Shown here piece after piece: positions 1,583-45,520 of a stretch of DNA of 47,071 nt. Position 1 is the stretch's first letter, and every line of letters starts with the position of its first letter. Location of the stretch: NCBI GenBank assembly GCA_903933915.1, contig CAIZLW010000190.1, positions 1 to 47,071 of the forward strand. The letters run 5' to 3'. This DNA is from an uncultured beta proteobacterium (lineage in GTDB: Bacteria; Pseudomonadota; Gammaproteobacteria; Burkholderiales; SG8-41). The notes below the pieces were generated by a model. That model ran no database searches. It saw only the letters and a program-made list of their open reading frames with translations, and was not told the origin of the DNA. A program made the position numbers and the translations under genes.

Positions 1583-2547
1583 GTGTCGAGCAGTGCTGCG
1601 ACAAAATCGTCGGCGACGAAGGGTCGCAGATCATCCATGCCTTCGCCGATGCCGATGAAGCGCACCGGAACCGGTTTGCCGCCGGCACGGCTGTGGGCGA
1701 TACCGGCAATTACGCCGCCTTTGGCGGTGCCGTCGAGCTTGGTCAGCACCAGACCGGTGACGCCGACCGCGGCATCGAATGCCGCGAGTTGCGCCAGCGC
1801 GTTTTGCCCGGTGTTGGCGTCCAGCACCAGCAGTACCTCATGCGGCGCGCCGGGCATCGCTTTGTCGATGACCCGCTTCACCTTGCGGATTTCTTCCATC
1901 AGATTCAGCTGGGTCGGCAGACGGCCGGCGGTGTCGGCAAGCACAATGTCGATGCCGCGCGCCCGCGCCGCGTTGATGGCGTCGAAAATCACCGCGGCAG
2001 CGTCGCCCGAGACCTGGGAAATGACGGTTACGTTGTTGCGTTCACCCCACGCCGCGAGCTGCTCGCGCGCGGCGGCACGGAAGGTATCGCCGGCTGCGAG
2101 CAGCACGGATTTGCCCTGGGCCTGGAAATAATGCGCGAGTTTGCCGATGGAGGTGGTTTTGCCGGCGCCATTGACGCCGGCGAGCATGATCACAAAAGGT
2201 TTGGCAGAACCGGTTTCGAGCGGTCTGGCGATGACTTCAAGCATGGCGCACAGTTCTTCGCGCAAGCCATCGCGCAACTGCGCGGCTTCGCTATAACGTC
2301 CGCGTCGTGCCCGGGCACGCAGCGCATCAAGCAGATGGATCGTCGCGGCGACGCCGACATCAGCGGTCAGCAGCACGGTTTCCAGTTCCTCGTAGAAGGC
2401 TTCGTCCAGTTTGCGTCCGGCCCCGAACAGGGAGCCCAGGCTTGCACCCAGTTGGGCGCGTGTTTTGCCCAGCCCCTGCTGCAGACGGGCCAGCCAGCCG
2501 GCCGCAGGCGCTTCTTCGGGATCTTTTTTTTTGCCGAAACCAAACAT
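1579..2547 (-). CDS. ftsY: Signal recognition particle receptor FtsY
   Basis: SRP GTPase that docks ribosome-nascent-chain/SRP complexes at the inner membrane for co-translational insertion. The 322-aa protein has an N-terminal helical domain, the G1 loop GVNGAGKTT at 124-132, DTAGR at about 205 and TKLDGTAKGG near 270. It begins MFGFGKKK and lacks the long acidic A domain of the E. coli protein; short forms like this are common in betaproteobacteria. First gene of the ftsYEX operon, transcribed divergently from the M16 peptidase genes. Confidence 0.97.
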   Translation of the reverse strand: MFGFGKKKDPEEAPAAGWLARLQQGLGKTRAQLGASLGSLFGAGRKLDEAFYEELETVLLTADVGVAATIHLLDALRARARRGRYSEAAQLRDGLREELCAMLEVIARPLETGSAKPFVIMLAGVNGAGKTTSIGKLAHYFQAQGKSVLLAAGDTFRAAAREQLAAWGERNNVTVISQVSGDAAAVIFDAINAARARGIDIVLADTAGRLPTQLNLMEEIRKVKRVIDKAMPGAPHEVLLVLDANTGQNALAQLAAFDAAVGVTGLVLTKLDGTAKGGVIAGIAHSRAGGKPVPVRFIGIGEGMDDLRPFVADDFVAALLDT

Positions 2548-2622
2548 GAATGTCGTGGTCAGATGAGGACGGCGCCGATACGCGCCGGTCCAGCAGGTTA
2601 ATTGGCTACAATTCTAACAGGG

Positions 2623-2639
2623 CCTTGCCGCCGGCAAGG
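2623..2639. promoter_or_regulatory. Perfect hairpin in the leader of the M16 peptidase operon
   Basis: CCTTGCC-GCC-GGCAAGG forms a 7-bp GC-rich stem with a 3-nt loop, 20 nt before the chosen start codon. No T-run of terminator length follows, so it may be an attenuator-like or mRNA-stabilising element. A possible -10 box TACAAT lies just upstream (2607-2612). Function is inferred only. Confidence 0.35.
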
Positions 2640-2658
2640 TTTCACAAGACAGGACACC

Positions 2659-4053
2659 ATGGCTGCTTTGCCGAAATTATTCGTCGTTTTGATCCTGGCA
2701 TTGGCCAGTCTGCCCGCCGCATCCGCTGCAAATGCAGCGGCAGATGATGTGGCGGTGAAAGATCTGGCCAACGGCTTGCGCGTCATCGTCAAGCCGGATT
2801 TGCGCGCGCCGGTGGTGGTCAGCATGGTCTGGTACCGCATCGGCAGCGTCGACGAGCAGGGCGGTGTCACCGGGGTGGCGCATGTGCTTGAACACATGAT
2901 GTTCAAGGGTACTAAAGCGGTGCCGGCGGGCGAATTTTCGCGGCTGATTGCCGTCGCGGGCGGACGCGACAACGCCTTCACCAGCCGCGACTACACCGGC
3001 TATTTCCAGACGCTGCACAAGTCCGCATTGCCGCTGTCCTTCCGGCTCGAAGCCGACCGCATGGCCAATCTGGTGCTGTCGCCGGAAGAGTTTGCCAAGG
3101 AATTGAAAGTGGTCATGGAGGAGCGCCGCTGGCGCACCGATGACCGGCCGCAGTCGGTGATGTACGAGCGCCTGCTGGCGACGGCGCTGACCGCGCATCC
3201 TTACCGCAATCCGGTGATCGGCTGGATGAACGATCTCGAGAACCTGAGCATCGACGATACGCGCCGTTTTTACGAGCAATGGTATTCGCCGAACAACGCG
3301 ATTGTTGTGGTGGTGGGTGATGTTGTTCCGGCCGAAGTCTTCGCGCTGGCCGAGCAGCATTTCGGCGCAATACCGCGCAAGGCATTGCCGCCGCGCAAGC
3401 CGCAGGATGAACCGCAGCAGCTTGGACTGAAGCGGCTGACCGTGAAGGTGCCCGCCGAGCAGGCGCAGGTGCTGATGGCCTACCGCGCGCCGCGTTTGAA
3501 CAAGCCGGCGGAGGAATGGGAGCCTTATGCGCTGGACATGCTGGAGAGTGTACTCAGCGGCAATCCCGCGGCCCGACTGCCCCAGCAGTTGGTAAAAACC
3601 GACCGTCTGGCGGCGACGGCTGGTGCCAGCTATGAAGGCGTCGGCCGCGGCCCTGGATTTTTCTATCTCAGCGGCACGCCGGCGAAAGGCAAAACTGCGG
3701 CTGAAATGGAACAAGGCCTGCGCCGCGAAGTGCGGCGCCTGATTGAAGAGGGCGTAACCCAGGAAGAGCTCGATCGCGTCAAGGCGCAGGCCATCGCCGC
3801 GCAGGTCTATCAGCGCGATTCGATGTTTTTTCAGGCGCGCCAGATCGGCTGGCTGGAGACCATCGGGTTGTCCTATCGCGATGAAAATCTGTTTATCGAG
3901 AAACTGCAGCAGGTCACGGCCGAGCAGGTACTCGATGTGGCGCGCAGGTATCTCGTCGATGATGCGCTGACGGTGGCTTATCTGGATCCCCAGCCGCTGG
4001 GTGCTGCGCCGGCACGGACCGCGCCGCCCGCGGGAGTTCGTCATGGCAATTAA
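2659..4053 (+). CDS. Exported zinc peptidase, M16 (pitrilysin/PqqL-like) family, catalytic member
   Basis: Predicted periplasmic metallopeptidase of 464 aa. The start at 2659 is preferred because it follows AGGA and gives a clean signal peptide (MAALPKLF... to ASA at about 23); an ATG at 2602 would add 19 residues without export features. The inverted zinc motif HVLEH is at 75-79 and the downstream glutamates are present around MEERRW. A single N- plus C-domain unit makes half of a typical M16 clamshell. The next gene overlaps by 11 bp and encodes a partner without the zinc motif, so the two probably form a heterodimer. Confidence 0.9.
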   Translation: MAALPKLFVVLILALASLPAASAANAAADDVAVKDLANGLRVIVKPDLRAPVVVSMVWYRIGSVDEQGGVTGVAHVLEHMMFKGTKAVPAGEFSRLIAVAGGRDNAFTSRDYTGYFQTLHKSALPLSFRLEADRMANLVLSPEEFAKELKVVMEERRWRTDDRPQSVMYERLLATALTAHPYRNPVIGWMNDLENLSIDDTRRFYEQWYSPNNAIVVVVGDVVPAEVFALAEQHFGAIPRKALPPRKPQDEPQQLGLKRLTVKVPAEQAQVLMAYRAPRLNKPAEEWEPYALDMLESVLSGNPAARLPQQLVKTDRLAATAGASYEGVGRGPGFFYLSGTPAKGKTAAEMEQGLRREVRRLIEEGVTQEELDRVKAQAIAAQVYQRDSMFFQARQIGWLETIGLSYRDENLFIEKLQQVTAEQVLDVARRYLVDDALTVAYLDPQPLGAAPARTAPPAGVRHGN

Positions 4054-5407
4054 CAACATGAAAATGAAATCGATGACCCGCACGCTGTGCGCACTGGCGT
4101 TGCTGGGCGCGGCACAACTGGCCCACGCGATCCTGCCGATTGAACACTGGCGCACTTCGACCGGTGCGAAAGTCTATTTCGTGGCCAATCGCGGTCTGCC
4201 GATGCTCGATGTATCCGTCGATGTTCCCGCCGGATCCGGCTTTGATACCCCGGAAAAATCCGGTCTGGCCTCGATGACCAACGGCTTGATGCGTCTGGGT
4301 GCAGCCGGGATGAGCGAGGATGCAATCGCACGCCGGCTCGCCGACGTCGGCGCCGAGATGGGCAATCGGTTTGACAGTGATCGCGGCGGCCTGTCGCTGC
4401 GCACGTTGTCCGATGTCAAGCGGCGCAGCCAGGCGCTGGAGGTGATGGCCGGGGTGCTGAGTGCGCCGGCATTTTCAGCGTCTATCGTCGAGCGTGAGAA
4501 AGCCCGTTACGCGAGCGCGCTGAAGGAGGCCGACCTGACGCCCGGTACCCAGGCCAATCAAGAGTTTTACCGCCAGGTTTACGGCAAACATCCCTATGCG
4601 CTGCGTTCGTCCGGCGAAGTCGATACGGTCGGGAAACTGCAACGCGACGACCTGATGGCGTTCTACCGCAGGCACTATGTGGCCGAACAGGCAGTCGTGG
4701 CGATCATGGGTGATGTCACCCGTCAGGAGGCGGAGGCAATCGCCGAACAGGTGACGCGTGCAATGCCGCGAAGCAATGGACCTGCGCTTGCCATCCCCGA
4801 AGTGCAGCCGCTGCCGGCGGCGGTGACCCGGATGATTGCGCATCCGGCAAGTCAGAGCCACATCATGATCGGCGGTCCCGGGATTCGCCGTGATGACCCG
4901 GATTATTTCACGCTGTTCGTCGGCAACTACGTGCTGGGCGGGGGCGGGTTTGTGTCGCGCATTACCGAGGAGGTTCGGCAAAAACGCGGCCTGGCCTATT
5001 CCGCCTACAGCTATTTCTCGCCGCTGCGCGCACGCGGGCCGTTCATCATCGGCATGCAGACGCGGCGTGACCAGGCCGAGCAGGCGCTGACCGTGGTCAG
5101 GAGCACGCTGCGTGAATTCATCGACAAGGGACCCACGGATCAGGAGGTCGTTGCCGCAAAGCAGAACATCGTCGGTGGTTTTCCGATGCGCATCGACAGC
5201 AACCGCAAGATTCACGAATACCTGGGGTTCATCGGATTCTATGAGCTGCCCATCGATTATCTCGAGACCTTTGTTGCCAACATCGAGCGGGTGACGGCTG
5301 CCGGCATCAAGACGGCATTTGCGCGCCGTATTGATCCGGACCGTCTGGTCACCGTGGTGGTCGGCGCCGATCGCGACCAGACGGCGGCGACTCCCGCGAC
5401 GCGCTGA
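4043..5407 (+). CDS. Exported M16 family protein, non-catalytic partner
   Basis: A 454-aa second M16 subunit. The ATG at 4043 has GGGAG upstream and gives a signal peptide ending near LAHA. Where the partner has HxxEH, this protein reads SGLASMTNG, so it cannot bind zinc in the usual way. It keeps the C-terminal substrate-binding signature around RGLAYSAYSYF. In this family one subunit usually carries the zinc site and the other the Arg/Tyr pair, so this is expected architecture and not decay. The 11-bp overlap with the upstream gene implies coupled synthesis. Confidence 0.88.
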   Translation: MAINNMKMKSMTRTLCALALLGAAQLAHAILPIEHWRTSTGAKVYFVANRGLPMLDVSVDVPAGSGFDTPEKSGLASMTNGLMRLGAAGMSEDAIARRLADVGAEMGNRFDSDRGGLSLRTLSDVKRRSQALEVMAGVLSAPAFSASIVEREKARYASALKEADLTPGTQANQEFYRQVYGKHPYALRSSGEVDTVGKLQRDDLMAFYRRHYVAEQAVVAIMGDVTRQEAEAIAEQVTRAMPRSNGPALAIPEVQPLPAAVTRMIAHPASQSHIMIGGPGIRRDDPDYFTLFVGNYVLGGGGFVSRITEEVRQKRGLAYSAYSYFSPLRARGPFIIGMQTRRDQAEQALTVVRSTLREFIDKGPTDQEVVAAKQNIVGGFPMRIDSNRKIHEYLGFIGFYELPIDYLETFVANIERVTAAGIKTAFARRIDPDRLVTVVVGADRDQTAATPATR

Positions 5408-5962
5408 TGCCCGCTGCGGGTTCAAAAAACTGCGAAGTACGGATCATCGGCGGCGCTTGGCGCAGCCGGCGCATCCGTTTTGCCGACCGTCCCGGCCTGC
5501 GACCGACGCCGGATCGCGTGCGCGAGACACTGTTCAACTGGCTGGGCCAGGATCTCGAGGGGCAGGACTGCCTCGACCTGTTTGCCGGCAGCGGCGCGCT
5601 GGGTTTCGAGGCGGCTTCCCGCGGTGCCCGGCGCGTAGTGATGGTTGAGTGCGATACGGCGGCCGCGCGTGCACTGCAGGCGAATCGCGATCTGCTTGCG
5701 GCCGATACGGTGGAAGTAGTGCGCGCCGATGCGCTAGAATTCATCAAGCATCATCGCACTGGTTACGACGTGGTCTTTCTCGATCCGCCGTTTGCCGATG
5801 ATTGCTGGCCGCAGCTGCTGGCGCTGTTGCCGCAATGCCTGAAGCCCGGCGCGCTGGTGTATTGCGAGCGCGCCGAGGCGCTGGACGCCGTGCCGGGTTG
5901 GGATATCGTCAAGACCGGACGCGCCGGACAGGTCAGCCATCAACTACTGAAAAGGGCGGAAC

Positions 5963-5973
<11 letters not shown>
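5407..5973 (+). CDS. rsmD: 16S rRNA (guanine966-N2)-methyltransferase RsmD
   Basis: SAM-dependent methyltransferase that modifies G966 of 16S rRNA in assembled 30S subunits. The 188-aa sequence shows RIIGGAWR near the N-terminus, the SAM-binding loop [10 protein letters not shown] at about 57-66 and the catalytic DPPF at 126-129. The ATG shares a base with the stop of the preceding M16 gene (TGATG) and the 3' end overlaps coaD by 11 bp. rsmD-coaD pairing is common in proteobacteria. Confidence 0.96.
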
Positions 5974-6728
<755 letters not shown>

Positions 6729-6746
6729 AGCACTGCCGCAGCAGGT

Positions 6747-7580
6747 TCAGCGGCGTTGACAGGACGGGCAGTAGCAGGTCGCACGCTGCGCCTGCTTTAT
6801 TTCACGAATGACGGTTCCGCAGCGCGTGCAGGATTCTCCGGCGCGTCCGTACACCAGAAAATGATTCTGGAAGTTGCCGGCCATGCCGTCGCTGCCGACG
6901 TAATCGCGCAGGGAGCTACCGCCGGCATCAATCGCCGAGGCCAGTGTTTTTTTGATTTCCTGCGCGAGCCGGCTGCAGCGTTCGCGGCTGACGCGTCCGG
7001 CCGGCGTGCGCGGATCGATTCCGGCGTGGAACAGCGCCTCGTTGGCGTAGATGTTGCCGACGCCGGCAACAACATGGCTGTCCATGATCACCAGCTTGAT
7101 CGCGGCGCTGCGGGTGCGGGTTTCGCGGTGCAGCACGGCACCGTCAAAATCTGCGGTCAGCGGTTCCGGTCCGATGGATGCGAGCAGTGGATGGGCGAGC
7201 GGGTCGCCGGTTTGCCACAGCACGAGGCCGAAACGCCGCGGGTCGCGCAGCCTGACCACGCGGCCATTGTCGATGATCAGGTCGAAGTGATCGTGCTTTT
7301 CCGGGGGCGTGACCTTGTCGACCAGCCACAGTCGCCCCGACATGCCGAGGTGCACGATCAGCGTACCCGCTTTGTCGTTTGCGGGCACGCAATTGAACAG
7401 CAGGTATTTGCCGCGACGGGAAAGCGATTCGATGCGCGCACCGGCAAGCCGCTGCTCAAGACCGCGCGGCACCGGTTGTCGCATGCCGCGGTGGCGCACG
7501 ATGGCGCACTCGATCCGCCGCCGTTCCACTGCAGCAGCAAGACCGCGCCGGGTGGTTTCAACTTCCGGGAGTTCTGGCAT
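6747..7580 (-). CDS. mutM: Formamidopyrimidine-DNA glycosylase
   Basis: Base-excision repair enzyme with N-glycosylase and AP-lyase activity against 8-oxoguanine and formamidopyrimidines. The 277-aa protein starts with the catalytic MPELPEVE, has the helix-two-turn-helix region around GVGNIYANEALF, and ends in a four-cysteine zinc finger (CTRC...CPSC). It converges with the ferredoxin gene, and its start is 14 bp from the end of the upstream DUF4340-like gene, so it may be read from that operon. Confidence 0.97.
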   Translation of the reverse strand: MPELPEVETTRRGLAAAVERRRIECAIVRHRGMRQPVPRGLEQRLAGARIESLSRRGKYLLFNCVPANDKAGTLIVHLGMSGRLWLVDKVTPPEKHDHFDLIIDNGRVVRLRDPRRFGLVLWQTGDPLAHPLLASIGPEPLTADFDGAVLHRETRTRSAAIKLVIMDSHVVAGVGNIYANEALFHAGIDPRTPAGRVSRERCSRLAQEIKKTLASAIDAGGSSLRDYVGSDGMAGNFQNHFLVYGRAGESCTRCGTVIREIKQAQRATCYCPSCQRR

Positions 7581-7594
7581 TTTAAGTATTTGTT

Positions 7595-8449
7595 TTATTT
7601 AACTTTTTCTGCGGGGTGGGTGATCCCCGGATTGCCCAGCAAGGTTCGGGCGGCCCCCGCGAGAAAGGTGTACTGCAAACCGTTGTCGCGCCGCCATAAC
7701 ACCAGCTGCGGTTCGCGTTGCAGCACGCCGAGCGTGAGCGTCGTGCCGTCGGCCAGTGTGATGCGGATATCGCCGCGTGGCGCGCGGCGGTCGTAGGGTT
7801 CTGCGGCGGCTGCGGAAGCCATGCGCCACTGATCGACGTAACGCTGCAGTTCATCGGCGCCGGCTTCGCCCGCTGGCGGCAACAGCGTCCACCGGCCGTT
7901 GTTTTTGCTGACGGTGAATTCCGGTAATGCCACCGCAACGGGTTGTTCGTTTTCCGCCAGCAGCGCGCGGCGTATCAGCGCCACGGCATTGAGCGGCAGC
8001 GCCGCGCCATGGCGCAGTTCGACGGCGTGTATGGTGTCGCCACGCAGCACGTATTGTTCGCGGGTCACGTTATTGATGCCGCCAAACGCATACTGCACGC
8101 CGTCGATGTCGAGAACTGCAGAGGGCAGATCCAGTTCGAAACGCGCGCGGTCGGTAGCGGGCAGGCGTGCAGTCGATTGCGCTTCGAGAATGGTCAGCAT
8201 GCGCAGGATCTGGAATTCGTCGGCGCGGGCCTGGAGCGGCGCCGTTATCCACCATTGTTCGCCGCGCCGTTCGATGGCGATCGGCGGGCGTTGCTGCCGC
8301 GTCAGTGTAATACGTGAGACCGCCGCAGCCTTGATGTCAGACAGCGGCGCGCGCGCGGCCTCTTCGCGCGACGGTGTGCGCCAGGCCAGCCAGGCCAGCA
8401 GCGCAATCGCGGTCATCAGTGCGACGTTGAGCAGCCAGCCGCGTTTCAT
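7595..8449 (-). CDS. DUF4340-like membrane-anchored protein of a Gld-type ABC export cluster
   Basis: 284-aa protein with one N-terminal membrane anchor (about residues 5-23) and a large extracytoplasmic part resembling DUF4340 proteins. The ATG at 8449 gives MKRGWLLN; an in-frame start 48 nt upstream adds no useful features. It is the last member of an ATPase-permease-GldG-like-DUF4340 gene set on the minus strand, an arrangement recurrent in proteobacteria. The substrate of the system is unknown; the assignment is by size, topology and context. Confidence 0.75.
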   Translation of the reverse strand: MKRGWLLNVALMTAIALLAWLAWRTPSREEAARAPLSDIKAAAVSRITLTRQQRPPIAIERRGEQWWITAPLQARADEFQILRMLTILEAQSTARLPATDRARFELDLPSAVLDIDGVQYAFGGINNVTREQYVLRGDTIHAVELRHGAALPLNAVALIRRALLAENEQPVAVALPEFTVSKNNGRWTLLPPAGEAGADELQRYVDQWRMASAAAAEPYDRRAPRGDIRITLADGTTLTLGVLQREPQLVLWRRDNGLQYTFLAGAARTLLGNPGITHPAEKVK

Positions 8450-38943: not shown

Positions 38944-39019
38944 GGGAGGTTAGCTCAGCCGGTAGAGCAGCGGACTTTTAATCCGTTGGTCGCGAGTTCG
39001 AATCTCGCACCTCCTACCA
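38944..39019 (+). tRNA. tRNA-Lys (anticodon TTT), used as integration site
   Basis: 76-nt cloverleaf with acceptor arms GGGAGGT/ACCTCCT (one G-U pair at the tip), anticodon loop CTTTTAA giving TTT, T loop TTCGAAT, and encoded CCA (39017-39019). The last 46 nt are repeated exactly at 44133-44178, marking the boundaries of an integrated element. The gene remains complete on the left side. Confidence 0.97.
38974..39019 (+). repeat. attL: 46-bp direct repeat within tRNA-Lys
   Basis: Runs from the anticodon loop through the CCA end and matches 44133-44178 base for base; the flanking bases on the left differ. A tRNA 3'-end duplication next to an integrase gene is the standard signature of site-specific insertion. 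Confidence 0.93.
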
Positions 39020-39028
39020 TTCAAGATC

Positions 39029-39060
39029 AAGGGGTTAGCTAAATTAGCTAGCCCTTTGTT
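39029..39060. terminator. Hairpin after tRNA-Lys carried by the element
   Basis: AAGGGGTTAGCTA pairs with TAGCTAGCCCTT around a 3-nt loop, with one bulged G, followed by TTTGTTCTTT. It overlaps the 3' end of the integrase gene, so it may work in both directions. The left arm shares 13 identical bases (CAAGGGGTTAGCT) with the terminator after attR. Confidence 0.65.
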
Positions 39061-40108
39061 CTTTCCGGCGTGTGGAAAACGTGGGGAGGTGGATCACATT
39101 ACCGCCCCTACCGTTTTCAATCCTCGCTGCTGCGACCGTCAGATGCTCGGTTGCATACTTCGCGTAACGATCTACCATTACGCGGGACTTCCAGCCGCCC
39201 AAGTCTTTCAGCTCATCGCAAGACGTCCCCGCCTGACGATGCCATGACGCCCATGTATGCCTGAGGTCATGGAACCGAAAATCCTCAATCCCTGCTTTCC
39301 TTAACGCGGTATGCCATGCCGAGTTGGTCAGTTCCCACCGGATCGGCTTCCCGTTGTAAGTGAAACAATAACGGGGATGTTTCCCGACCTGTTCTTCCAA
39401 CACGGCGACTGCATCACTGTTAAGCGGAACGCCTCGCGGCGTGCCATTCTTGGTCTGGTCTAGCCAAGCGGTCTGTCGTTCCAGATCAACCCTGTTCCAT
39501 TCCAAGTCGGCAATCTCACGTGCACGGCACCCTGTCGCCAGCGCATAACGCACGATGGCGGCTAGGTGAGTGGGGCAAGCTGCAATCAACCGGTTGGCGT
39601 CCTCTCGGTTTAGCCAGCGGTCGCGCTCCACTTCGCCACACAAAAGCCGGATCTTCGGAAATGTATCAATCCACTGCCATTCATCGCGAGCCATCCGCAT
39701 CAGGCAGCGAATCAGCGCAAGGTAACGATTGACGGTTGCAGGCTTGTTCCCTTTATCCAGTTCGCCCTGAACAACTTTCCAGATTAAATCCCCTGAAATA
39801 TCGTTCAACATCAGCGACCCGAAGTAGGGGTCCAGTTTCCTGCAAATCCGCCGAACGTCTCCAATGCTCCGAAGATTCGACTTTACTGTGAGATACCGTA
39901 AAACGGCTTCCTGCCATGAGCGCTGTGACTTGATTCCAAAATGCTGCTTGTTGAACGCGTCGAGTTTCAGCTTTGCGACGAGTGCTTCGGCAGCTTTCCG
40001 GTCTTCAGTTTTAGCGCTTTGGCGTATTCGGTCGCCGTTTGGCAAGACAACATCAATCCACCAGTAGCGCGAGTCTCGCCGTCGGTGGACTCCTTTCTCA
40101 CGGGCCAT
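39044..40108 (-). CDS. Tyrosine recombinase (phage-type integrase)
   Basis: Catalyses recombination between the tRNA-Lys attachment sites. The 354-aa protein has an N-terminal DNA-binding region, a core-binding SAM-like domain (about 60-145), and the catalytic domain with R195 (TGCRAREI), H280-xx-R283 (HDLRH), W306 (LGGWKS, histidine replaced by Trp as in many integrases) and Tyr315 (VDRYAKY). GGAAA precedes the ATG. Its stop lies 24 bp from the end of attL. The N-terminal 142 bp overlap the 3' end of the upstream HTH gene in another frame. Confidence 0.94.
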   Translation of the reverse strand: MAREKGVHRRRDSRYWWIDVVLPNGDRIRQSAKTEDRKAAEALVAKLKLDAFNKQHFGIKSQRSWQEAVLRYLTVKSNLRSIGDVRRICRKLDPYFGSLMLNDISGDLIWKVVQGELDKGNKPATVNRYLALIRCLMRMARDEWQWIDTFPKIRLLCGEVERDRWLNREDANRLIAACPTHLAAIVRYALATGCRAREIADLEWNRVDLERQTAWLDQTKNGTPRGVPLNSDAVAVLEEQVGKHPRYCFTYNGKPIRWELTNSAWHTALRKAGIEDFRFHDLRHTWASWHRQAGTSCDELKDLGGWKSRVMVDRYAKYATEHLTVAAARIENGRGGNVIHLPTFSTRRKEQRAS

Positions 40109-40350
40109 AAAGTTTCCTTTCCAGCCCGCCCTCGGTGCTTATATTCGGTAAGCCACGCGTCCAAGTCAACAACGTCGTAAACGCAACGCCTGCCGAATTT
40201 GACAGTGGGTACTTGCAAACCTGCGAGTAGCGTGACGCCGATACCCAGATAAGCCGCCGCCTGTTCCTTGGTAAGGCAACGGATTCTGGGCAAGGGCAGA
40301 TCACGCGACTCATCATTCCCCCCGGGATTGTCTGTAGTAGGCGGCTCCAT
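39967..40350 (-). CDS. AlpA/excisionase-like helix-turn-helix protein
   Basis: 127-aa protein from ATG 40350, which has GAGGAGG 9 nt upstream. Residues about 24-70 (LTKEQAAAYLGIGV ... VKFGRRCVYDVVDLDAWLTEY) form a MerR/AlpA-type winged helix, as in recombination directionality factors and element regulators. It overlaps the rep gene end by 38 bp and the integrase start by 142 bp. It probably controls integrase expression or excision; this is inferred. Confidence 0.82.
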   Translation of the reverse strand: MEPPTTDNPGGNDESRDLPLPRIRCLTKEQAAAYLGIGVTLLAGLQVPTVKFGRRCVYDVVDLDAWLTEYKHRGRAGKETLWPVRKESTDGETRATGGLMLSCQTATEYAKALKLKTGKLPKHSSQS

Positions 40351-41641
40351 TTTTCTCAGCCTCCTCGCTAGTGGTTGCGTCTTGCCGAACGCCCCGCTTA
40401 TTCGCGCGGGTGTTGAATTGCTTGGCTTTGAGCGCGAGCTTTTGGGCAAGCCATTCATCAAACTCGATTTCCAGCTTGTCCCGGCACCATGACTCATGCC
40501 ACTCACGGCAGCTTTCCATCAAGGCGACGACACCTTCCCCATAGACCTTGATTCCCCGAACGGTCATAAAGCTCGTCAGGAGGGCCGTAAACATGCGGTA
40601 GAGCCTGTCCAGCGACGGAACCCTTGCCGAGGTATAAGAACGCGTTAAAGGCCCGTCATCCAGCCGCCAGCGGATTTCCGAAAGATGGGTCCACAGAGGA
40701 TGCAACAGCCAGCGCGCGCGATTGGAGTCGGACGGATCAGGAACGACCAGACGCAGCCAAGACGTAATCGCCGCCAGCCACAGCCCGCCCAGCTTGTCCT
40801 TGATCTGGTCAAAGCCCCAGATTCGGAACTGGCTTAGAACCTCTCGCCGGAATTGGAATTCCAGCCGCCAAACCGTTGAGGAACCATCCCAAGCCGCCCG
40901 CCGCCACAGTTCATGGAAAAACGTCTTACCGCTTTTTTGTTCAATCTCGGCGGTCTTATCGTAAAGCCTCGCGCTGAGAATGCTACTGGCTCCGAAAACC
41001 CAGCCCGTGAACTTACCTTTGCGGGCGTAGGTGTCGATTCCAGTGGCTTGGGTGATCCACGCCTCACGGGATAACGCCCCGATGTCTGTATCGGTCTGGA
41101 AGTCAGCATAGATATCGATCCGGCTAACCACGGCGGTCTGGACAGCTTCTGCAAGTTCCTCAATGACCTTCTGAAGTTCTTCGACTACGGCTTCCAGCGG
41201 TTTATGGGCTAGCAGTTCGGACGAGACTTGAACATAAGCCACCGGGAGTCGGCCACTGTTACCGGACCGCAGGGCGATCTGATAGCCGTTATCCCTTAGG
41301 ATGTAGGCGAAACCCTGCCGCCCCTTGTCCGACACCTCAAAGACGTGTTTTCCAACAGACCATTGAGCTTGGGATTGCTCGGTCTGATCCCTGCTTTGGG
41401 CCGCGTATTTGGCGATTGCTAAGTCGTGATCGACCGCCGGGAGGAGGTTTCCATAAAAGGAGAGATAAAGACTATCCACTCCAATCCGTAGGCCGCGGTA
41501 GCCCGTGTCCCCGTTCCCTTTGTATCCATGGGATGCTGTGTTACTAGGCGGCGCATCCCCGATTGCCACCGGTTCAGGCGGCGGGGCTTGCAGCCCCGAA
41601 CGCCCGAGCCCGGCGGCGCTGGGTTCCTTCTTCTTGACCAT
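40313..41641 (-). CDS. Replication initiation protein, Rep_trans/RstA-like
   Basis: 442-aa protein resembling the RstA-type initiators of filamentous phages and related elements. Recognisable pieces are VVSRIDIYADFQTD, LSARLYDKTAEIEQKSGKTF and VWRLEFQFRREVL, the usual core of the family. Such proteins nick the double-strand origin and stay bound through a tyrosine during rolling-circle replication. AGGAAA lies 8 nt before the ATG. The N-terminal 45 residues are a low-complexity extension. Confidence 0.85.
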   Translation of the reverse strand: MVKKKEPSAAGLGRSGLQAPPPEPVAIGDAPPSNTASHGYKGNGDTGYRGLRIGVDSLYLSFYGNLLPAVDHDLAIAKYAAQSRDQTEQSQAQWSVGKHVFEVSDKGRQGFAYILRDNGYQIALRSGNSGRLPVAYVQVSSELLAHKPLEAVVEELQKVIEELAEAVQTAVVSRIDIYADFQTDTDIGALSREAWITQATGIDTYARKGKFTGWVFGASSILSARLYDKTAEIEQKSGKTFFHELWRRAAWDGSSTVWRLEFQFRREVLSQFRIWGFDQIKDKLGGLWLAAITSWLRLVVPDPSDSNRARWLLHPLWTHLSEIRWRLDDGPLTRSYTSARVPSLDRLYRMFTALLTSFMTVRGIKVYGEGVVALMESCREWHESWCRDKLEIEFDEWLAQKLALKAKQFNTRANKRGVRQDATTSEEAEKNGAAYYRQSRGE

Positions 41642-41760
41642 GATGATTTCCTATCCGATTGGCAGGCATGCGATTGCTTCCTGCAACGGATACGGAATCT
41701 ATGCATGGGGAGCTTAGAAGTCGTCCATCTCAAATGAGTATTTCAGGTGGAGTAATGGAA

Positions 41761-42537
41761 TCAAAGACTTTTGAGCTTTTTGGATTCGTAATATTGTTTT
41801 CGAAGGTTTTTTCTTGCGTTGGGAGAGGACTTATAAACTTTCAGCACGTCAATCAATAAATGCTCTAGTTGATCGTCGCTGAGTTTGTCGAATCCCATTT
41901 CACGAAGCATCGCTAGGGAATATCGAAGGTCTTGGTAAGACTTCCAATGCTTTTGCTGAGGTCCTTTAAGGGCACTTCGGAGACGATGAAAGAAGCGCTT
42001 TTCCCCGAGTAACTCAGCTTTTGAGATTCGGGCCGCAATCGTTGGACATGAAACAGCTGATCTATCAAGCCTGACTGCATCAAATAGTGAATTGTCATCC
42101 CCATCACCGGCCTCCTTTACCAACGTAGCGATGGACCGTTGAAAAACCATGATGCTAAGAACATTTCGCTGTAGTGCCATAGCGAGTAAAACCAAATCAG
42201 ATCTCTTAAAGGCTCCTCCCGGGCCACCATTCCACTCGATTTCCCGATCATCTTCCATTTCCTTAATCAGGATTTCTTGAGGGTCCGGTTGTTGGACCAC
42301 CATTTTCAGATGATCAATTTCTCCCAATACGTAGAGCATCCATGCGAGAAGTTCTATGAGTGATAGCTCATAAAGCGGCGCCCACCAAAGACCGTCACCG
42401 ATAAGCTCACGGAGCTTCTCAGGACTAGCGGAGCGCACCATGTCCTCTAGTCCTTCGTACTCAACACGAAATTCCGGTAGTTTCCGAACAAAACGACGGA
42501 ATTGGTCTACGGTGAGTTTTCCGTAATCTTTTTCCAT
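41761..42537 (-). CDS. Element-borne protein of unknown function
   Basis: 258-aa protein that I do not recognise. It appears soluble and mixed helical, with no signal peptide, membrane helix or obvious catalytic motif; the C-terminus is strongly basic (NARKNLRKQYYESKKLKSL). No Shine-Dalgarno sequence is visible before ATG 42537. Base composition is lower in GC than the integrase side. It lies between the initiator gene and the divergent lipoproteins, a position used by cargo genes. Confidence 0.7.
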   Translation of the reverse strand: MEKDYGKLTVDQFRRFVRKLPEFRVEYEGLEDMVRSASPEKLRELIGDGLWWAPLYELSLIELLAWMLYVLGEIDHLKMVVQQPDPQEILIKEMEDDREIEWNGGPGGAFKRSDLVLLAMALQRNVLSIMVFQRSIATLVKEAGDGDDNSLFDAVRLDRSAVSCPTIAARISKAELLGEKRFFHRLRSALKGPQQKHWKSYQDLRYSLAMLREMGFDKLSDDQLEHLLIDVLKVYKSSPNARKNLRKQYYESKKLKSL

Positions 42538-42841
42538 TTGAGGTGGTGTAGTCAGCCCAGTATTGGGCCGTGAATAACTTGTTTAATGGTTCTTCATGAT
42601 AATCGGTGATAACAAGCGGGGGGTGTTTAACGCCATTGTTCCTCCCGCTTTTATCCGTGATGTAGTGGTTTAGGGTGTTGGGGGGAGTTCACGTAACAAT
42701 CCGAAAATACGTGAAATCCAAGATTCCAAACCCCTCAATGTTGCGTGGAAAATCAAAAGCATGAGGGGCATTGAGGCTGGCCGTGTTTCGTGTTAAAACA
42801 ATAACTTACGATGGCTTACGTTCCAGCCTTAAGGGGGTATC
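42538..42841. other. Structured divergent spacer, candidate origin or operator region
   Basis: 304 bp without a gene. It contains GCCCA-GTAT-TGGGC (about 42555-42568), AAGCGGG/CCCGCTT (42614-42620 and 42644-42650), TTCACGTA/TACGTGAA (42688-42695 and 42708-42715) and CCTCAATG/CATTGAGG (42733-42740 and 42769-42776). Clustered inverted repeats beside a rolling-circle initiator suggest a double-strand origin, single-strand origin or binding sites for the HTH protein. Promoters for both flanking genes must also lie here. Confidence 0.5.
42791..42801 (+). repeat. Direct repeat TGTTAAAACAA, left copy
   Basis: Identical to 44110-44120; the following bases are also alike (TAACTTAC versus CTAGTTAC). 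The two copies flank exactly the two FlgO-like lipoprotein genes. Confidence 0.55.
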
Positions 42842-43495
42842 GTGAAAAAAAGCATTCAAGGTTTGATTATGTTTTCGCTGTTGGCAGGTGGCTGTGCGAT
42901 TCAAGATGGTCGCCCGCCTGTCGCTACATTCAGTGTTGAGCCTGAATACAAGTTAAAGTCAGCAACACATTGGCAAGTTGTGGCTAACGATATTGCAAAT
43001 CATATTGAACGTGTATCTGCGGGAAATGATAATCGAGTTTTTGTGCCTGCAAATTCTTCGACGGTCTTTGGCCGGGTTTTTTCATCCCAACTTCGCAGCA
43101 GTCTTATCTCTAAAGGGGTTGCTGTTAGCTCTGTCCCTGACGGGGCCATTCGTGTTTCCGTTGCAGCAGAAGAAGTGCAGCATGTTTCGATTGCTCGTTA
43201 TGCTCCGGGCACTTTGACTGCTTTAGGGGCTGGTGTTTTGGTTCTTGGTGATGCTGCTGATGGGCGACACAATGTCACTGGTGCACTTGGGGCGGTATTA
43301 GTGGCCGCGGATGTGGCCGCGTCGCTGATCGAAATGCAGAAAAGGCCTACAACAGAAATCGTGCTTACTACGTCAATGGAGCGCGATGGAAGATTTCTGC
43401 TACATCGCAGTGATACCTATTACGTAGATGAAGTTGATACGTCGCTATTTACGGTGACTGGCAAGCAATTTGCCATCGTCGGCGGGGGGGGCTAA
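42842..43495 (+). CDS. Element-borne lipoprotein, FlgO partner-like
   Basis: 217-aa predicted lipoprotein, lipobox LAGGC (cysteine 18). GTG start with AAGGGGG 7 nt upstream. The first half (HWQVVANDIANHIERV ... VFVPANSSTVFGRVFSSQLRSSLISKGVAVS) has the outline of a short FlgO-type domain; a hydrophobic Gly/Ala stretch follows (TLTALGAGVLVLGDAAD). The gene is directly followed by a FlgO-like gene with no gap, so they likely act together at the envelope. AT-rich codon use differs from the chromosomal genes. Confidence 0.75.
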   Translation: MKKSIQGLIMFSLLAGGCAIQDGRPPVATFSVEPEYKLKSATHWQVVANDIANHIERVSAGNDNRVFVPANSSTVFGRVFSSQLRSSLISKGVAVSSVPDGAIRVSVAAEEVQHVSIARYAPGTLTALGAGVLVLGDAADGRHNVTGALGAVLVAADVAASLIEMQKRPTTEIVLTTSMERDGRFLLHRSDTYYVDEVDTSLFTVTGKQFAIVGGGG

Positions 43496-44041
43496 ATGAA
43501 GATGTTCAAGGCTAATCCAATAGTTTTAGCATTCCTTGCTGTTCTGGCAGTAAGTGGATGCGCAAATAAAAGTATTTATGCTGAACGAGAAAGCGTATTA
43601 ATTTCTGCTGCATATGATGCGGTTGACTCTCTGGTAAAGAATCAAACTAAGACACCGCTTATCGCGCCGGGAGGGAAGCGCGTATTAGTTACCACAGTAG
43701 TGGAGCTAAATAATCTTGAAAAGTCTTCTGCTTTTGGGCGCTTGCTGGCTGAGCAGATGGCATCACGTCTGGCCCAAATTGGCATATCAGTATCTGAATT
43801 AAAGCTTCGAGGAAACCTGTTCGTTAGCCCAGGGCAGGGAGAGCTAATTCTTTCTAGGGAAATACGTGAAATCAGCAGTAACCAAAATGCTGATGCTGTG
43901 CTAGTCGGAACATATACAGATGCAGGGGACGCTGTTTACGTAACTGTAAAACTGGTACGAGCGACTGACTCAACAGTGTCGAGTGCCTACAATTTCCTAG
44001 TTGTTAAATCTCAAACATACGCGACTTTGCTGGAAAGGTAA
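43496..44041 (+). CDS. FlgO-family outer-membrane lipoprotein
   Basis: 181-aa predicted lipoprotein, lipobox AVSGC (cysteine 22). The pattern KRVLVTTVVELNNLEKSSAFG, LLAEQMASRLAQIGISVSELKL and AVLVGTYTDAGDAVYVTVKLV fits the FlgO domain. FlgO in Vibrio is an outer-membrane protein tied to flagellar stability, but FlgO-domain proteins also occur away from flagella. ATG follows the preceding stop directly. No flagellar gene is in this window. Confidence 0.8.
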   Translation: MKMFKANPIVLAFLAVLAVSGCANKSIYAERESVLISAAYDAVDSLVKNQTKTPLIAPGGKRVLVTTVVELNNLEKSSAFGRLLAEQMASRLAQIGISVSELKLRGNLFVSPGQGELILSREIREISSNQNADAVLVGTYTDAGDAVYVTVKLVRATDSTVSSAYNFLVVKSQTYATLLER

Positions 44042-44109
44042 CGTGGGGAAAACAACAAAAATTAGCGAGCTTCGGCGAGCGTAGGCGGGTTAGGGCGGGC
44101 TATGTTCAC

Positions 44110-44120
44110 TGTTAAAACAA
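44110..44120 (+). repeat. Direct repeat TGTTAAAACAA, right copy
   Basis: Matches 42791-42801 exactly and lies 13 bp before attR. It may be an integrase arm-type site, or the edge of a cargo module. Confidence 0.5.
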
Positions 44121-44132
44121 CTAGTTACATCA

Positions 44133-44178
44133 ACTTTTAATCCGTTGGTCGCGAGTTCGAATCTCGCACCTCCTACCA
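44133..44178 (+). repeat. attR: 46-bp fragment of tRNA-Lys
   Basis: Exact copy of the tRNA-Lys 3' end from the anticodon loop to CCA. It lacks the 5' half, so it is not a functional tRNA. It marks the right end of the integrated element. Confidence 0.93.
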
Positions 44179-44188
44179 GTTCCGGCAC

Positions 44189-44220
44189 AAGGGGTTAGCT
44201 CAAAAAGCTGGCCCCTTTTT
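44189..44220 (+). terminator. Original tRNA-Lys terminator, right of attR
   Basis: AAGGGGTTAGCT (44189-44200) pairs with AGCTGGCCCCTT (44206-44217), using two G-U pairs, around a 5-nt loop and followed by a T-run. It was presumably next to tRNA-Lys before the element inserted. Confidence 0.8.
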
Positions 44221-44368
44221 CTGTTTTTGAACCCGGAAAAGCGTATAAGAGAGATGCGGCGTCTCTGCATCCGCTCACTGAAGCTTGTATTTAACTTCTT
44301 ATCGTAACTGCCGATGTGGCTCCTGACAGCCCGGCAATCGGCCAGCAAATGGAGATCGGAAGGACCAA

Positions 44369-45520
44369 ATGACGACCGATTCAACGGCGAGTCCGGGCAT
44401 AGCGCTGCCAAACAGGCTTTTCGAGGGCAAGGCGACCCTCGGCGAGAGGCTTCAGGGCCTGCACAGACAGTTGATCGATACGGTTTCGTGCGTTGATCGC
44501 ATTGCCTGCGCAATTTACGATCAGCCCGAAGATCTGTTGAAGACCTTCATTAACAGCACCCGATCCGGCGAGCCCATTACCGCTTACCAGTTCAAGCTGT
44601 CTGACAGCGTTTCGCTGAGCCATCTCGCCAAAAGCGGGGAGTTTCGTGTGATCGCCGATATCCCCGCTTCGCTGGCGCCCAATACGGCTCATTCGGCCTG
44701 GGTGATCAAGCAGGGTTATCAATCCTCATTTACCGTGCCCATGTACGACAACGGTGCATTCATGGGTTTCATCTTTTTCGATTCGTTGCAGCAGGACGCG
44801 TTTACGTCGACAGTGCAGCGTGACCTCGGTCTTTATTGCACGCTGATCAACATGGCGATTTCCAACGAACTGGCGTCTGTGCGCGCGGTCGTTGCATCGG
44901 CTCATGTCGCGCGTGATTTCACCGACCTTCGCGATTTTGAAACCGGCGCCCACCTCGAGCGTATGGCACGCTACTCCAGGGTGATCGGCCGCGCGATCGC
45001 GCCGGTTTACGGATTAAGCGATGAATTTGTTGAACACTTGTATCTCTATGCGCCGCTGCACGACATCGGCAAGATCGGCATCCCCGACAAGGTTCTGCTG
45101 AAACCCGGCAAGCTTGATCCGGAAGAACGCAAGCTCATGGAAACGCATGTGGAGAAGGGGCGTGAGGTTCTGAAGAAGATCCTCGGTGATTTCGGTATAG
45201 ACCATCTTCCTGATTCCCTGGTCATGATGAATATTGTCGGCTGCCATCACGAATTCATGGACGGCAGCGGTTACCCGGCCGGCCTGAAGGGAGACGCCGT
45301 CCCCGTTGAGGCGCGCATTGTCACGGTGGCGGATATTTTCGATGCCCTGACCAGCAAGCGTCCGTATAAAGCGGCATGGACTGTCGAAGAGGCCCTTACC
45401 GAACTGGATCGCATGACGGCTGCCGGCAAGCTGGATGGCAATTGTGTCGCTGCAATCAAGCTTCATGCCGCGGAGATGGGGGAAATCGGAAGGCGTTATC
45501 AGGACATTCATCAGGAGTAA
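44369..45520 (+). CDS. HD-GYP phosphodiesterase with GAF domain
   Basis: Predicted cyclic di-GMP hydrolase. 383 aa: GAF-like sensor (about 35-170), then HD-GYP domain with HDIGKIGIPD (HD at 231-232), HHEFMDGSGYPAG (GYP at 301-303) and DIFDALTS. The catalytic metal ligands look intact. GGAAGGA precedes the ATG by about 4 nt. It is host DNA just outside attR, probably the original neighbour of tRNA-Lys, and may balance the GGDEF protein at 19 kb. Confidence 0.92.
   Translation: MTTDSTASPGIALPNRLFEGKATLGERLQGLHRQLIDTVSCVDRIACAIYDQPEDLLKTFINSTRSGEPITAYQFKLSDSVSLSHLAKSGEFRVIADIPASLAPNTAHSAWVIKQGYQSSFTVPMYDNGAFMGFIFFDSLQQDAFTSTVQRDLGLYCTLINMAISNELASVRAVVASAHVARDFTDLRDFETGAHLERMARYSRVIGRAIAPVYGLSDEFVEHLYLYAPLHDIGKIGIPDKVLLKPGKLDPEERKLMETHVEKGREVLKKILGDFGIDHLPDSLVMMNIVGCHHEFMDGSGYPAGLKGDAVPVEARIVTVADIFDALTSKRPYKAAWTVEEALTELDRMTAAGKLDGNCVAAIKLHAAEMGEIGRRYQDIHQE

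What the first reader, a model, noticed from the sequence alone, without database searches (positions are those of the whole stretch)
38974..44178. Compact integrative element in tRNA-Lys with a RstA-like initiator and lipoprotein cargo
Seen: 46-bp perfect repeat of the tRNA 3' end at both edges, integrase beside attL, HTH protein, Rep_trans-like initiator, one unknown gene and two lipoproteins, in about 5.2 kb. Known: Rep_trans/RstA proteins start rolling-circle replication in filamentous phages and related elements. Inference: this is a minimal replicating integrative element or phage satellite that carries envelope lipoproteins instead of coat or conjugation genes. I do not recall this gene set being described.
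Basis: partly seen in the sequence, partly recalled or inferred. Interest (0 to 1): 0.7.

Follow-up and report, generated by a model that had tools for sequence, protein, structure and literature searches.

The report
Small tRNA-integrating elements with swappable cassettes
A 5.2-kb stretch of DNA that has jumped into a tRNA gene is one member of a widespread family of very small mobile elements that seem to copy themselves by rolling-circle replication and that exchange their middle section, often a phage-defence system, while keeping their replication and integration genes.

Summary
A perfect 46-bp repeat of the tRNA-Lys 3' end bounds a 5,159-bp element, and two congeneric genomes match its predicted empty site (98.3% over 120 bp; 92.9% over 141 bp). 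The element belongs to a large family. Of 117 relatives found, 80 were mapped and 42 are bounded by tRNA-derived repeats (3.9-9.0 kb). REP's predicted fold matches only Rep_trans rolling-circle initiators at E<=0.001, and the known active-site residues are conserved in 57-59 of 59 REPs. A covarying hairpin lies just 5' of REP. In nine pairs with similar cores (REP 80-91%, INT 87-98%) the cargo differs; one pair shares one cargo gene. The slot gene is replaced too in six of the eight pairs that have one. Cargo elsewhere matches many phage-defence models (509 PADLOC families versus 54 in flanking genes). Here it is a FlgO-type lipoprotein pair seen as an operon elsewhere. No significant coat, Zot, packaging or conjugation match occurs in the window element. 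Excision, replication and transfer are inferred, not shown. I judge it a new variant of a known kind (IME/satellite-like).

The parts
38944..39019 (+). tRNA-Lys(ttt), target gene; its 3' part is attL
   Evidence: ARAGORN
38974..39019 (+). 46-bp direct repeat, copy 1 (integrase side)
39023..39063 (+). element-borne terminator-like hairpin next to the tRNA (39028-39062 is 83% identical to the displaced host copy 44188-44222)
   Evidence: hairpin -23.8 kcal/mol; failed the strict T-count rule of that script
39078..39087 (.). integrase-side arm-like word AACGTGGGGA, shared with the distal end
39044..40108 (-). INT, tyrosine integrase (354 aa)
   Evidence: PF00589 E 8.5e-32; relatives
39967..40350 (-). 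HTH (AlpA/excisionase-like, about 127 aa; start codon inferred), overlaps INT by 142 bp and REP by 38 bp
   Evidence: HTH_17 weak here, above the Pfam cut-off in a family member (L142)
40313..41641 (-). REP, Rep_trans-fold initiator (442 aa); D56, D176/D180, Y227, K229, E232, E261
41638..41703 (-). hairpin just 5' of REP, covarying in relatives; candidate replication origin/nick site or translational control hairpin
41761..42537 (-). slot gene (UNK, family A, 258 aa, all-helical model, no PDB fold match at E<=0.001)
42842..43495 (+). LP1, lipoprotein cargo gene (217 aa, GTG start)
43496..44041 (+). LP2, FlgO-domain lipoprotein cargo gene (181 aa)
   Evidence: PF17680 E 2.5e-37
44040..44049 (.). 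distal arm-like word AACGTGGGGA
44133..44178 (+). 46-bp direct repeat, copy 2 (attR)
44179..44222 (+). host sequence with the terminator displaced from tRNA-Lys by the insertion; directly follows tRNA-Lys in G759 and G761

Best explanation
It is a small tRNA-integrating element of a distinct family. SHOWN by sequence: insertion into tRNA-Lys that restores the tRNA 3' end and brings a terminator-like hairpin; a recurrent order slot gene - REP - HTH - INT - tRNA in many hosts; REP with the predicted fold and the active-site residues of Rep_trans rolling-circle initiators; a hairpin just 5' of REP that covaries in a set of relatives; a middle section (cargo, and in most pairs the slot gene) that differs between elements with similar cores; cargo rich in matches to phage-defence models. 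INFERRED: INT with the HTH protein as directionality factor excises the element as a circle, using arm sites at both ends; REP nicks at the hairpin through Tyr227 and starts rolling-circle replication, so that the small circle is not lost and perhaps can be packaged or mobilised; the slot gene, being diverse and often swapped with the cargo, is a control or incompatibility factor; recombination near the 5' end of REP and near the far end replaces the cassette, so that a constant 'chassis' carries changing passengers. Here the passenger is a FlgO-type lipoprotein operon, probably captured from a chromosomal source.
For: Repeat and empty site. Of 129 pattern matches in genome contigs 117 encode REP relatives; 80 were returned and mapped. 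Of these 80, 42 are bounded by tRNA-derived repeats (23-66 bp, 38 of the 42 at least 45 bp), 3,904-9,005 bp long, median 6,345 (bounds of L080, L123 and L156 set by hand). Among the 36 closer ones (L080-L149) slot family A in 23, family B in 10 (grouped partly by eye), neither in 3. A 4.15-kb element with only slot, REP, HTH, INT and one antisense 127-aa ORF (L078/L080). REP model pLDDT 88.4; Foldseek PDB hits at E<=0.001 are six chains, all Rep_trans initiators 4cij, 4cwc, 4cwe (5.8e-9 to 1.3e-7, probability 1.00; TM by target 0.51-0.59), then mostly TBP folds. PF02486 is the commonest Pfam match among 59 REPs (7 of 59, best E 1.3e-4). Residues tested by mutation in MobT RelSt3 (PMC6499999 passages) have counterparts conserved in 59 of 59 REPs (E232 in 57 of 59). 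Relatives on plasmids, some annotated replication initiation protein. Hairpin: 7 of 8 pairs with two-sided changes, covariation 0.532 versus 0.225 shuffled, 0/500. Exchange: of 19 pairs with REP >=62%, 18 share no cargo gene apart from the slot gene at E<=1e-5; L115/L118 REP 91, INT 87, slot 28%; L123/L141 INT 97% but slot A versus B. In the nine pairs compared at DNA level the shared block starts within 185 bp of the REP start in 7, and the shared far end is 90-199 bp in 8. Window G+C: slot/LP genes 44-49%, REP/HTH/INT 55-57%. Arm sites: longest word shared by an element's two ends 8.7 nt on average versus 6.6 across elements and 6.2 shuffled.
Against: No excised circle, replication or transfer observed; no terminal overlap among loci of 1.5-19.9 kb, of which only whole contigs could show one. 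The window hairpin alone is not significant (z -1.11); mean z over 40 slot-A members is -1.84, 17 below -2, the covariation set was 13 sequences chosen by eye, and one of its five measures, further pair types, does not exceed the shuffles (130/500). Window REP itself has no PF02486 match. PADLOC (E<=1e-8) hits the largest cargo protein in 13 of 30 elements tested, in 5 of these with a candidate (PDC) model as best hit, and there is no one-by-one control on flanking genes. In 2 of the 8 slot-bearing pairs the shared block runs through the slot gene, L140/L142 share a lipoprotein cargo gene (88%), and junctions are not at one nucleotide, so an origin-driven exchange mechanism is not demanded.
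Confidence: 0.72

Rival explanations
1. Integrative and mobilizable element: REP is mainly a MobT-like relaxase that nicks an oriT (the hairpin), and the element pirates the conjugation pore of a resident plasmid or ICE; replication of the circle is a by-product.
For: Rep_trans-bearing IMEs of streptococci have integrase + Rep_trans protein + cargo without a pore, and one such protein was shown to be a relaxase; initiator and relaxase functions overlap in MobT (PMC5704250, PMC7563843, PMC6499999 passages). No conjugation-pore match in the window element.
Against: PMC7563843 states that the relaxase families of Gram-negative bacteria are unrelated to the initiators that maintain plasmids. PMC6499999 ties MobT relaxases to an N-terminal HTH plus PF02486; window REP has no HTH match and a low-confidence N terminus. 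No helper was looked for or identified.
Confidence: 0.3
2. Phage satellite or filamentous-phage relative: REP makes DNA that a helper phage packages (as RS1/CTX-type or tmRNA-island satellites).
For: AlpA-like HTH + tyrosine integrase + defence cargo resembles tmRNA islands of Pseudomonas, one of which is moved by a jumbo phage (PMC12595487 abstract and passages); Rep_trans proteins occur in filamentous phages (PMC13107129 passages).
Against: No match in 50,697 phage records for window REP at E<=1e-5 or L115 REP at E<=1e-3; a pattern-based scan of IMG/VR gave 5 loci. Window genes have no significant coat, Zot or packaging match; the nearest are chance-level, HTH to a terminase small subunit (E 0.1) and LP1 to a head fiber protein (E 0.079). 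Family cargo was seen only as the top 25 of 84 Pfam families.
Confidence: 0.25
3. The lipoprotein pair is itself a defence/exclusion system acting at the envelope, because it sits where other members hold defence genes.
For: Same position as AbiL, retron RT, restriction-modification and AriA-like cargo.
Against: An LP2 homologue lies beside LP1 in 7 of 7 other genomes with LP1, two of them (same genus) beside a metF-like gene; LP1 and LP2 have no PADLOC match at E<=1; lipoproteins are not enriched in the family cargo; 17 of 30 elements' largest cargo proteins have no PADLOC match.
Confidence: 0.2
4. The element is dead: a fixed island whose core genes persist by chance.
For: Single REP in this genome; no circle seen.
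Against: Core ORFs intact and att repeat perfect in the window; similar cores with different middles recur in Pseudomonadota.
Confidence: 0.1

Closest known systems
Rep_trans/MobT-bearing IMEs of Firmicutes (e.g. IMESag-rpsI, IME_oriT)
   Same: Integrase, Rep_trans-class protein, direct repeats, assorted cargo, no conjugation pore (PMC5704250, PMC7563843 passages)
   Different: Window REP has no PF02486 match and no HTH match; gene order slot-REP-HTH-INT; several tRNA targets; hosts mainly Pseudomonadota; relaxase role untested
tmRNA genomic islands I23/I44/I55 of Pseudomonas (PMC12595487 passages)
   Same: Tyrosine integrase, AlpA, direct repeats, small-RNA gene target, defence cargo, no transfer genes
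   Different: Those share a ~18-kb region with YqaJ, an HTH protein and an inovirus Gp2-like protein; here similar pairs share a 2.6-3.7 kb module with a Rep_trans-fold initiator
Small plasmids pTHEBA.01 (Mesotoga, 1,724 bp) and a Synechococcus PCC 11801 plasmid (1,750 bp)
   Same: REP homologues over part of the protein: Mesotoga 28.6% with window REP, Synechococcus 33.6% over 25% of L112 REP
   Different: Plasmid records; Mesotoga has two hypothetical CDS, Synechococcus no annotation; integrase not looked for; distant hosts
Filamentous phages / RS1-type satellites with RstA
   Same: Rep_trans-class initiator (recalled for RstA; PMC13107129 passage mentions CTXphi)
   Different: No significant coat/Zot match in the window element, tyrosine integrase into tRNA, no REP match in phage records
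FlgO family lipoproteins (PF17680)
   Same: LP2 matches far above the cut-off
   Different: A flagellar role in Vibrio is recalled, not tested; here on a mobile element and the only FlgO match in this genome

Membership tests
Rep_trans superfamily | Initiator fold of RepSTK1/RepDE | tested here: met
   Predicted model; at E<=0.001 Foldseek gives only Rep_trans initiators, probability 1.00, TM by target 0.51-0.59
Rep_trans superfamily | Three metal-binding acidic residues and catalytic Tyr with K(+2), E(+5) | tested here: met
   D56, D176, D180, Y227, K229, E261 in 59 of 59, E232 in 57 of 59 against RelSt3 residues in PMC6499999; equivalence judged by order and spacing, not by superposition
Rep_trans superfamily | PF02486 model match | tested here: inconclusive
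   Window REP: none. Aligned REPs: 7 of 59 at E<=0.01, best 1.3e-4, the commonest Pfam match
Rep_trans superfamily | Nicking at a hairpin origin | not testable with these tools
   Hairpin 5' of REP, covarying in 13 members, is a candidate site
Integrative and mobilizable element | Site-specific integration with att repeats and integrase | tested here: met
Integrative and mobilizable element | oriT or relaxase shown to allow mobilisation in trans | not testable with these tools
   REP could be a relaxase; no mating data
Filamentous phage / RS1-like satellite | Coat, Zot or morphogenesis genes, or REP related to known phage initiators | tested here: not met
   No significant hit in Pfam, NCBIfam or PHROGs; no REP match in phage records. 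PHROGs gives REP weak hits: endonuclease E 5e-4, replication initiation E 0.04
PICI/P4/cfPICI-type phage satellite | Capsid-remodelling or packaging genes, helper-phage induction | tested here: inconclusive
   No significant packaging match in the window element; helper dependence cannot be tested here
tmRNA islands (I55 class) | tmRNA target and the shared YqaJ/HTH/Gp2-like region | tested here: not met
   tRNA-Lys target and a different core; definition from PMC12595487
FlgO lipoprotein family (LP2) | PF17680 above curated cut-off, lipobox | tested here: met
   128.1 bits versus 22.6; lipobox

The most novel reading that the evidence does not exclude
A large, undescribed family of self-replicating integrative 'chassis' elements, mainly in Pseudomonadota (with REP-HTH-INT relatives in anammox planctomycetes, whose ends I did not find), built on a Rep_trans-fold initiator that the standard model barely sees. 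The payload (often phage defence) and a fast-changing control gene are swapped between two fixed regions, the origin hairpin/5' end of REP and the far att arm. Exchange may be driven by the initiator's own nicking at the origin, and the slot gene may set immunity or compatibility between elements competing for the same tRNA.
Probability: 0.35. Interest if true: 0.78.

Novelty: new variant of a known kind. Interest (0 to 1): 0.63.

Why it matters
Many genomic islands have an integrase but no recognised transfer or replication gene, and how they persist is open (PMC5704250 makes this point). This family offers a compact, testable answer: a divergent Rep_trans-fold initiator, with weak PF02486 matches in only 7 of 59 members, found in 11 of 368 other genomes sampled from the class. 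It also gives natural pairs whose replication/integration genes are similar while the middle differs, which makes cassette exchange and the role of the slot gene testable, and a fixed cargo position in which to look for new phage-defence genes.

Tried and rejected
Rejected or weakened: (1) 'Lipoproteins are the theme of the family': lipobox in 2 of 143 cargo versus 4 of 146 flanking ORFs, by a strict rule that misses lipoprotein-like ORFs such as those of L140/L142. (2) 'The unknown gene is cargo': it recurs beside REP, although it is often exchanged with the cargo. (3) A shared motif upstream of the slot gene: no 10-mer in more than 3 of 34 elements, same as shuffles. (4) Excised circles: no terminal overlap >=15 nt. 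(5) A single exchange point: block starts range from 918 bp upstream to 73 bp inside the REP ORF, 7 of 9 within 185 bp. (6) Fold of the slot protein: no PDB match at E<=0.001. (7) The first genome contigs and viral-contig scans with the single window REP found nothing; profile scans succeeded. (8) Literature: seven searches aimed at the element and two at parts of it; I saw listings only, often the top of a longer list (20 of 1,228, 10 of 61, 15 of 29), and no listed title or abstract described this gene set. The library holds open-licence papers only, so this is weak evidence of absence.

Rows dropped before counts: 37 of 117 REP relatives were not returned; 38 of the 80 returned did not give bounds by the rules (no tRNA or no suitable repeat on the piece held); four long flanking ORFs were left out of 150 to keep within the residue limit; 5 of 35 cargo-bearing close elements (L140, L142, L143, L145, L149) were not scanned one by one with PADLOC; L109 and L114 and five sequences over 170 nt were left out. 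The 143 cargo ORFs include 10 slot-B genes, some ORFs that may not be genes, and the six distant elements; PADLOC families are redundant, so 509 versus 54 counts models, not proteins.
Full report
WHAT IS THERE. tRNA-Lys(ttt) is at 38944-39019. Its last 46 bp recur perfectly at 44133-44178. Between the copies, on the minus strand and reading towards the tRNA, lie an unknown gene (42537-41761), REP (41641-40313), an HTH gene (start taken as 40350, end 39967, overlapping both neighbours) and a tyrosine integrase (40108-39044). On the plus strand are two lipoprotein genes, LP1 42842-43495 and LP2 43496-44041. LP2 is a FlgO-domain protein (E 2.5e-37). Slot and LP genes have 44-49% G+C, REP/HTH/INT 55-57%, the flanks 56-61%.

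INSERTION. Of 74 genomes of the family searched for the tRNA with up to 3 mismatches, 42 had a match. I fetched the surroundings of 18 tRNA-Lys loci in 17 congeneric genomes. Joining the tRNA to the post-attR flank predicts the empty site, which matches G759 (L063) at 98.3% over 120 bp and G761 (L065) at 92.9% over 141 bp, that is 44 and 65 bp past the tRNA and no further; L070 and L077 match at 92.7% over 124 and 123 bp. A yeeE homologue is found upstream in 16 of the 18 (not in L070 or L071). A tsaA-like gene follows the tRNA within about 120 bp in 7 of 18 (L060, L064, L066, L067, L072, L074, L076) and about 1.4 kb away in two (L062, L063). The element brings its own terminator-like hairpin next to the tRNA, 83% identical over 35 nt to the displaced host one. 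In the family 27 of 43 elements (42 plus the window) pass a strict hairpin-plus-T rule there; the window fails the T count although its hairpin is -23.8 kcal/mol.

THE FAMILY. Window REP found relatives in 11 of 368 other genomes sampled from the class and 15 of 397 others sampled from the phylum (G323 is in both). A REP profile found 117 relatives among 129 pattern matches in genome contigs; 80 were returned, among them Nitrosomonas, Methylovorus, Methylophaga, Acidovorax, Uliginosibacterium, Haliea, Pseudidiomarina, Thiolinea and Methylomonas, anammox bacteria (Brocadia, Scalindua) and, more distantly, Geobacter and Paenibacillus/Brevibacillus. In viral contigs the profile scan gave 5 loci. 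Of the 80, 42 are bounded by repeats of a tRNA: Arg 11, Lys 7, Phe 7, Met 6, Asn 4, Val 3, Gly 2, Ala 1, Leu 1. The repeats are 23-66 bp and the elements 3,904-9,005 bp, median 6,345. None of the anammox loci is among the 42, and in several of them INT lies about 2 kb from REP. In the 36 closer elements the order is slot gene - REP - HTH - INT - tRNA, with slot family A (as in the window) in 23, family B in 10 and neither in 3; three family-B proteins have no Pfam match; L100 has its integrase in two ORFs. One relative with an 84%-identical integrase in the same tRNA-Lys has no cargo beyond one antisense 127-aa ORF: slot, REP, HTH and INT in 4.15 kb (L078/L080).

REP. Window REP has no Rep_trans match in Pfam and none in NCBIfam; PHROGs gives weak endonuclease/replication hits. 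Among 59 aligned REPs PF02486 is the commonest Pfam match, 7 of 59, best E 1.3e-4. The model (pLDDT 88.4) matches at E<=0.001 six chains only, all Rep_trans rolling-circle initiators (4cij, 4cwc, 4cwe; TM by target 0.51-0.59), followed mostly by TBP folds, in line with the TBP-like fold ascribed to Rep_trans (PMC13107129 passages). In MobT RelSt3, D72, D177, Y252, K254 and E280 are essential and E257 important (PMC6499999 passages). Their likely counterparts here are D56, D176 or D180, Y227, K229, E261 and E232: 59 of 59, E232 57 of 59. Distant homologues sit on tiny plasmids (Mesotoga 1,724 bp; Synechococcus 1,750 bp) and on plasmids where they are annotated replication initiation protein.

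HAIRPIN. Between slot gene and REP, slot-A members can form a hairpin close to the REP start. On 13 sequences chosen by eye (12 of the 40 plus L111), 7 of 8 pairs show two-sided changes, 88.5% of cells pair (69.7% shuffled) and the covariation score is 0.532 (0.225 shuffled, 0/500; at most 0.173 when slid by 1-3 columns); the number of further pair types is not above the shuffles (130/500). Over 40 sequences 39 have a negative z, mean -1.84, 17 below -2; the window alone is -1.11. It may be the nick site/origin, since RepDE is described as nicking at a hairpin near a plasmid-specific palindrome (PMC13107129), or an RNA hairpin at the ribosome site; these are not separated here.

CASSETTE EXCHANGE. 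Of 19 pairs with REP >=62% identical, 18 share no cargo gene other than the slot gene; L140/L142 share one lipoprotein gene (88%). In the nine pairs with REP 80-91% and INT 87-98% the slot protein is 22-56% identical where it can be aligned (seven pairs), of different families in L123/L141, and absent in L134/L135. At DNA level a 2.6-3.7 kb block (REP to att) and a short far end are shared. Block starts lie within 185 bp of the REP start in 7 of 9, and far ends are 90-199 bp in 8 of 9 (L140/L142: 715 bp). In L081/L083 and L084/L089 the block runs through the slot gene, so there only the cargo differs. The junctions differ in detail, so recombination at different points plus selection explains them as well as an origin-driven mechanism.

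CARGO. 143 cargo ORFs match 509 PADLOC models at E<=1e-5, against 54 for 146 flanking ORFs; models are redundant, and some flanking genes are defence-like too. Taking the largest non-slot cargo protein, 13 of 30 elements hit PADLOC at E<=1e-8: retron RTs, AbiL, AriA-like ATPases, HNH, NsnA and, in 5 of the 13, candidate (PDC) models as best hit. The top 25 of 84 Pfam families include C5 methylase, N6 methylase, Methylase_S, ResIII, AIPR, nSTAND3, RloB and RelE. An Indioceanicola megaplasmid has a REP relative beside an endonuclease/UvrD pair (Gabija-like, my reading) and an integrase. Window LP1-LP2 is different: no PADLOC match at E<=1. An LP2 homologue lies beside LP1 in 7 of 7 other genomes with LP1, two of one genus beside a metF-like gene. 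The reverse is weaker: of 8 other genomes with LP2, LP1 is beside it in 3, with a partial fourth, within pieces of about 3.4 kb. LP1 has no plasmid match and LP2 one. The genome has flagellin and no other FlgO domain. The most economical reading is an envelope operon picked up as passenger.

HOW IT PROBABLY WORKS. INT and the HTH protein excise and insert the element (inferred; the two ends of an element share words of 8.7 nt on average, versus 6.6 across elements and 6.2 shuffled). REP replicates the circle (inferred from predicted fold, active site and plasmid relatives). Transfer between cells is unknown: mobilisation with REP as relaxase, or packaging by a helper phage, are both open.

KNOWN OR NEW. 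It works like Rep_trans IMEs of Firmicutes and like defence-carrying tRNA/tmRNA islands. It is not placed in the I55 class (different core) nor among filamentous phages (no significant coat/Zot match, no phage REP match). Seven literature searches aimed at it, seen as listings, showed no description of this gene set; the library holds open-licence papers only. I call it a new variant of a known kind.

Noticed in passing
L071 (G766:C34), 74-7759: A different element occupies the same kind of tRNA-Lys in a congeneric genome: 46-bp repeats at 74-119 and 7683-7728, integrase 45% identical, other genes including a Doc/Fic-like ORF (613-1002) and a different Rep-like ORF (4240-5532); names by eye.
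   Followed up: partly
L069 (G765:C370), 663-2008: A second copy of the tRNA-Lys 3' end 1.2 kb downstream of tRNA-Lys, followed by a sequence like the displaced terminator: probable remnant of another insertion.
   Followed up: no
L118 3411/4324/4481; L123 5140/5303; L133 5614/5797/5979: Several tRNA-end copies at or beyond the outer att of some elements, looking like scars of earlier insertions.
   Followed up: no
window 39967-40108 and L078 6584-6725: HTH and integrase genes overlap by 142 bp in both the window and its nearest relative.
   Followed up: partly
window 44369-45520: A GAF/HD gene (HD-GYP-like) lies between attR and the tsaA-like gene, whereas in 7 of 18 congeneric loci tsaA follows tRNA-Lys directly.
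   Followed up: no
L079 (G748:C2), 4297-4446: A 50-residue integrase fragment (72% identical) just after tRNA-Lys: probable remnant of a related element.
   Followed up: no
NC_017935.1 (L015) and NZ_CP143532.1: 1.7-kb plasmids of Mesotoga and Synechococcus that encode a distant REP homologue.
   Followed up: partly
L081, L082, L083, L084, L089, L099, L112, L120, L138, L141: Slot family B (SLWEIAHRWAGYDP...LPEFWFP) has no Pfam match in three members tested; several end in a basic RGRPRK-like stretch.
   Followed up: partly
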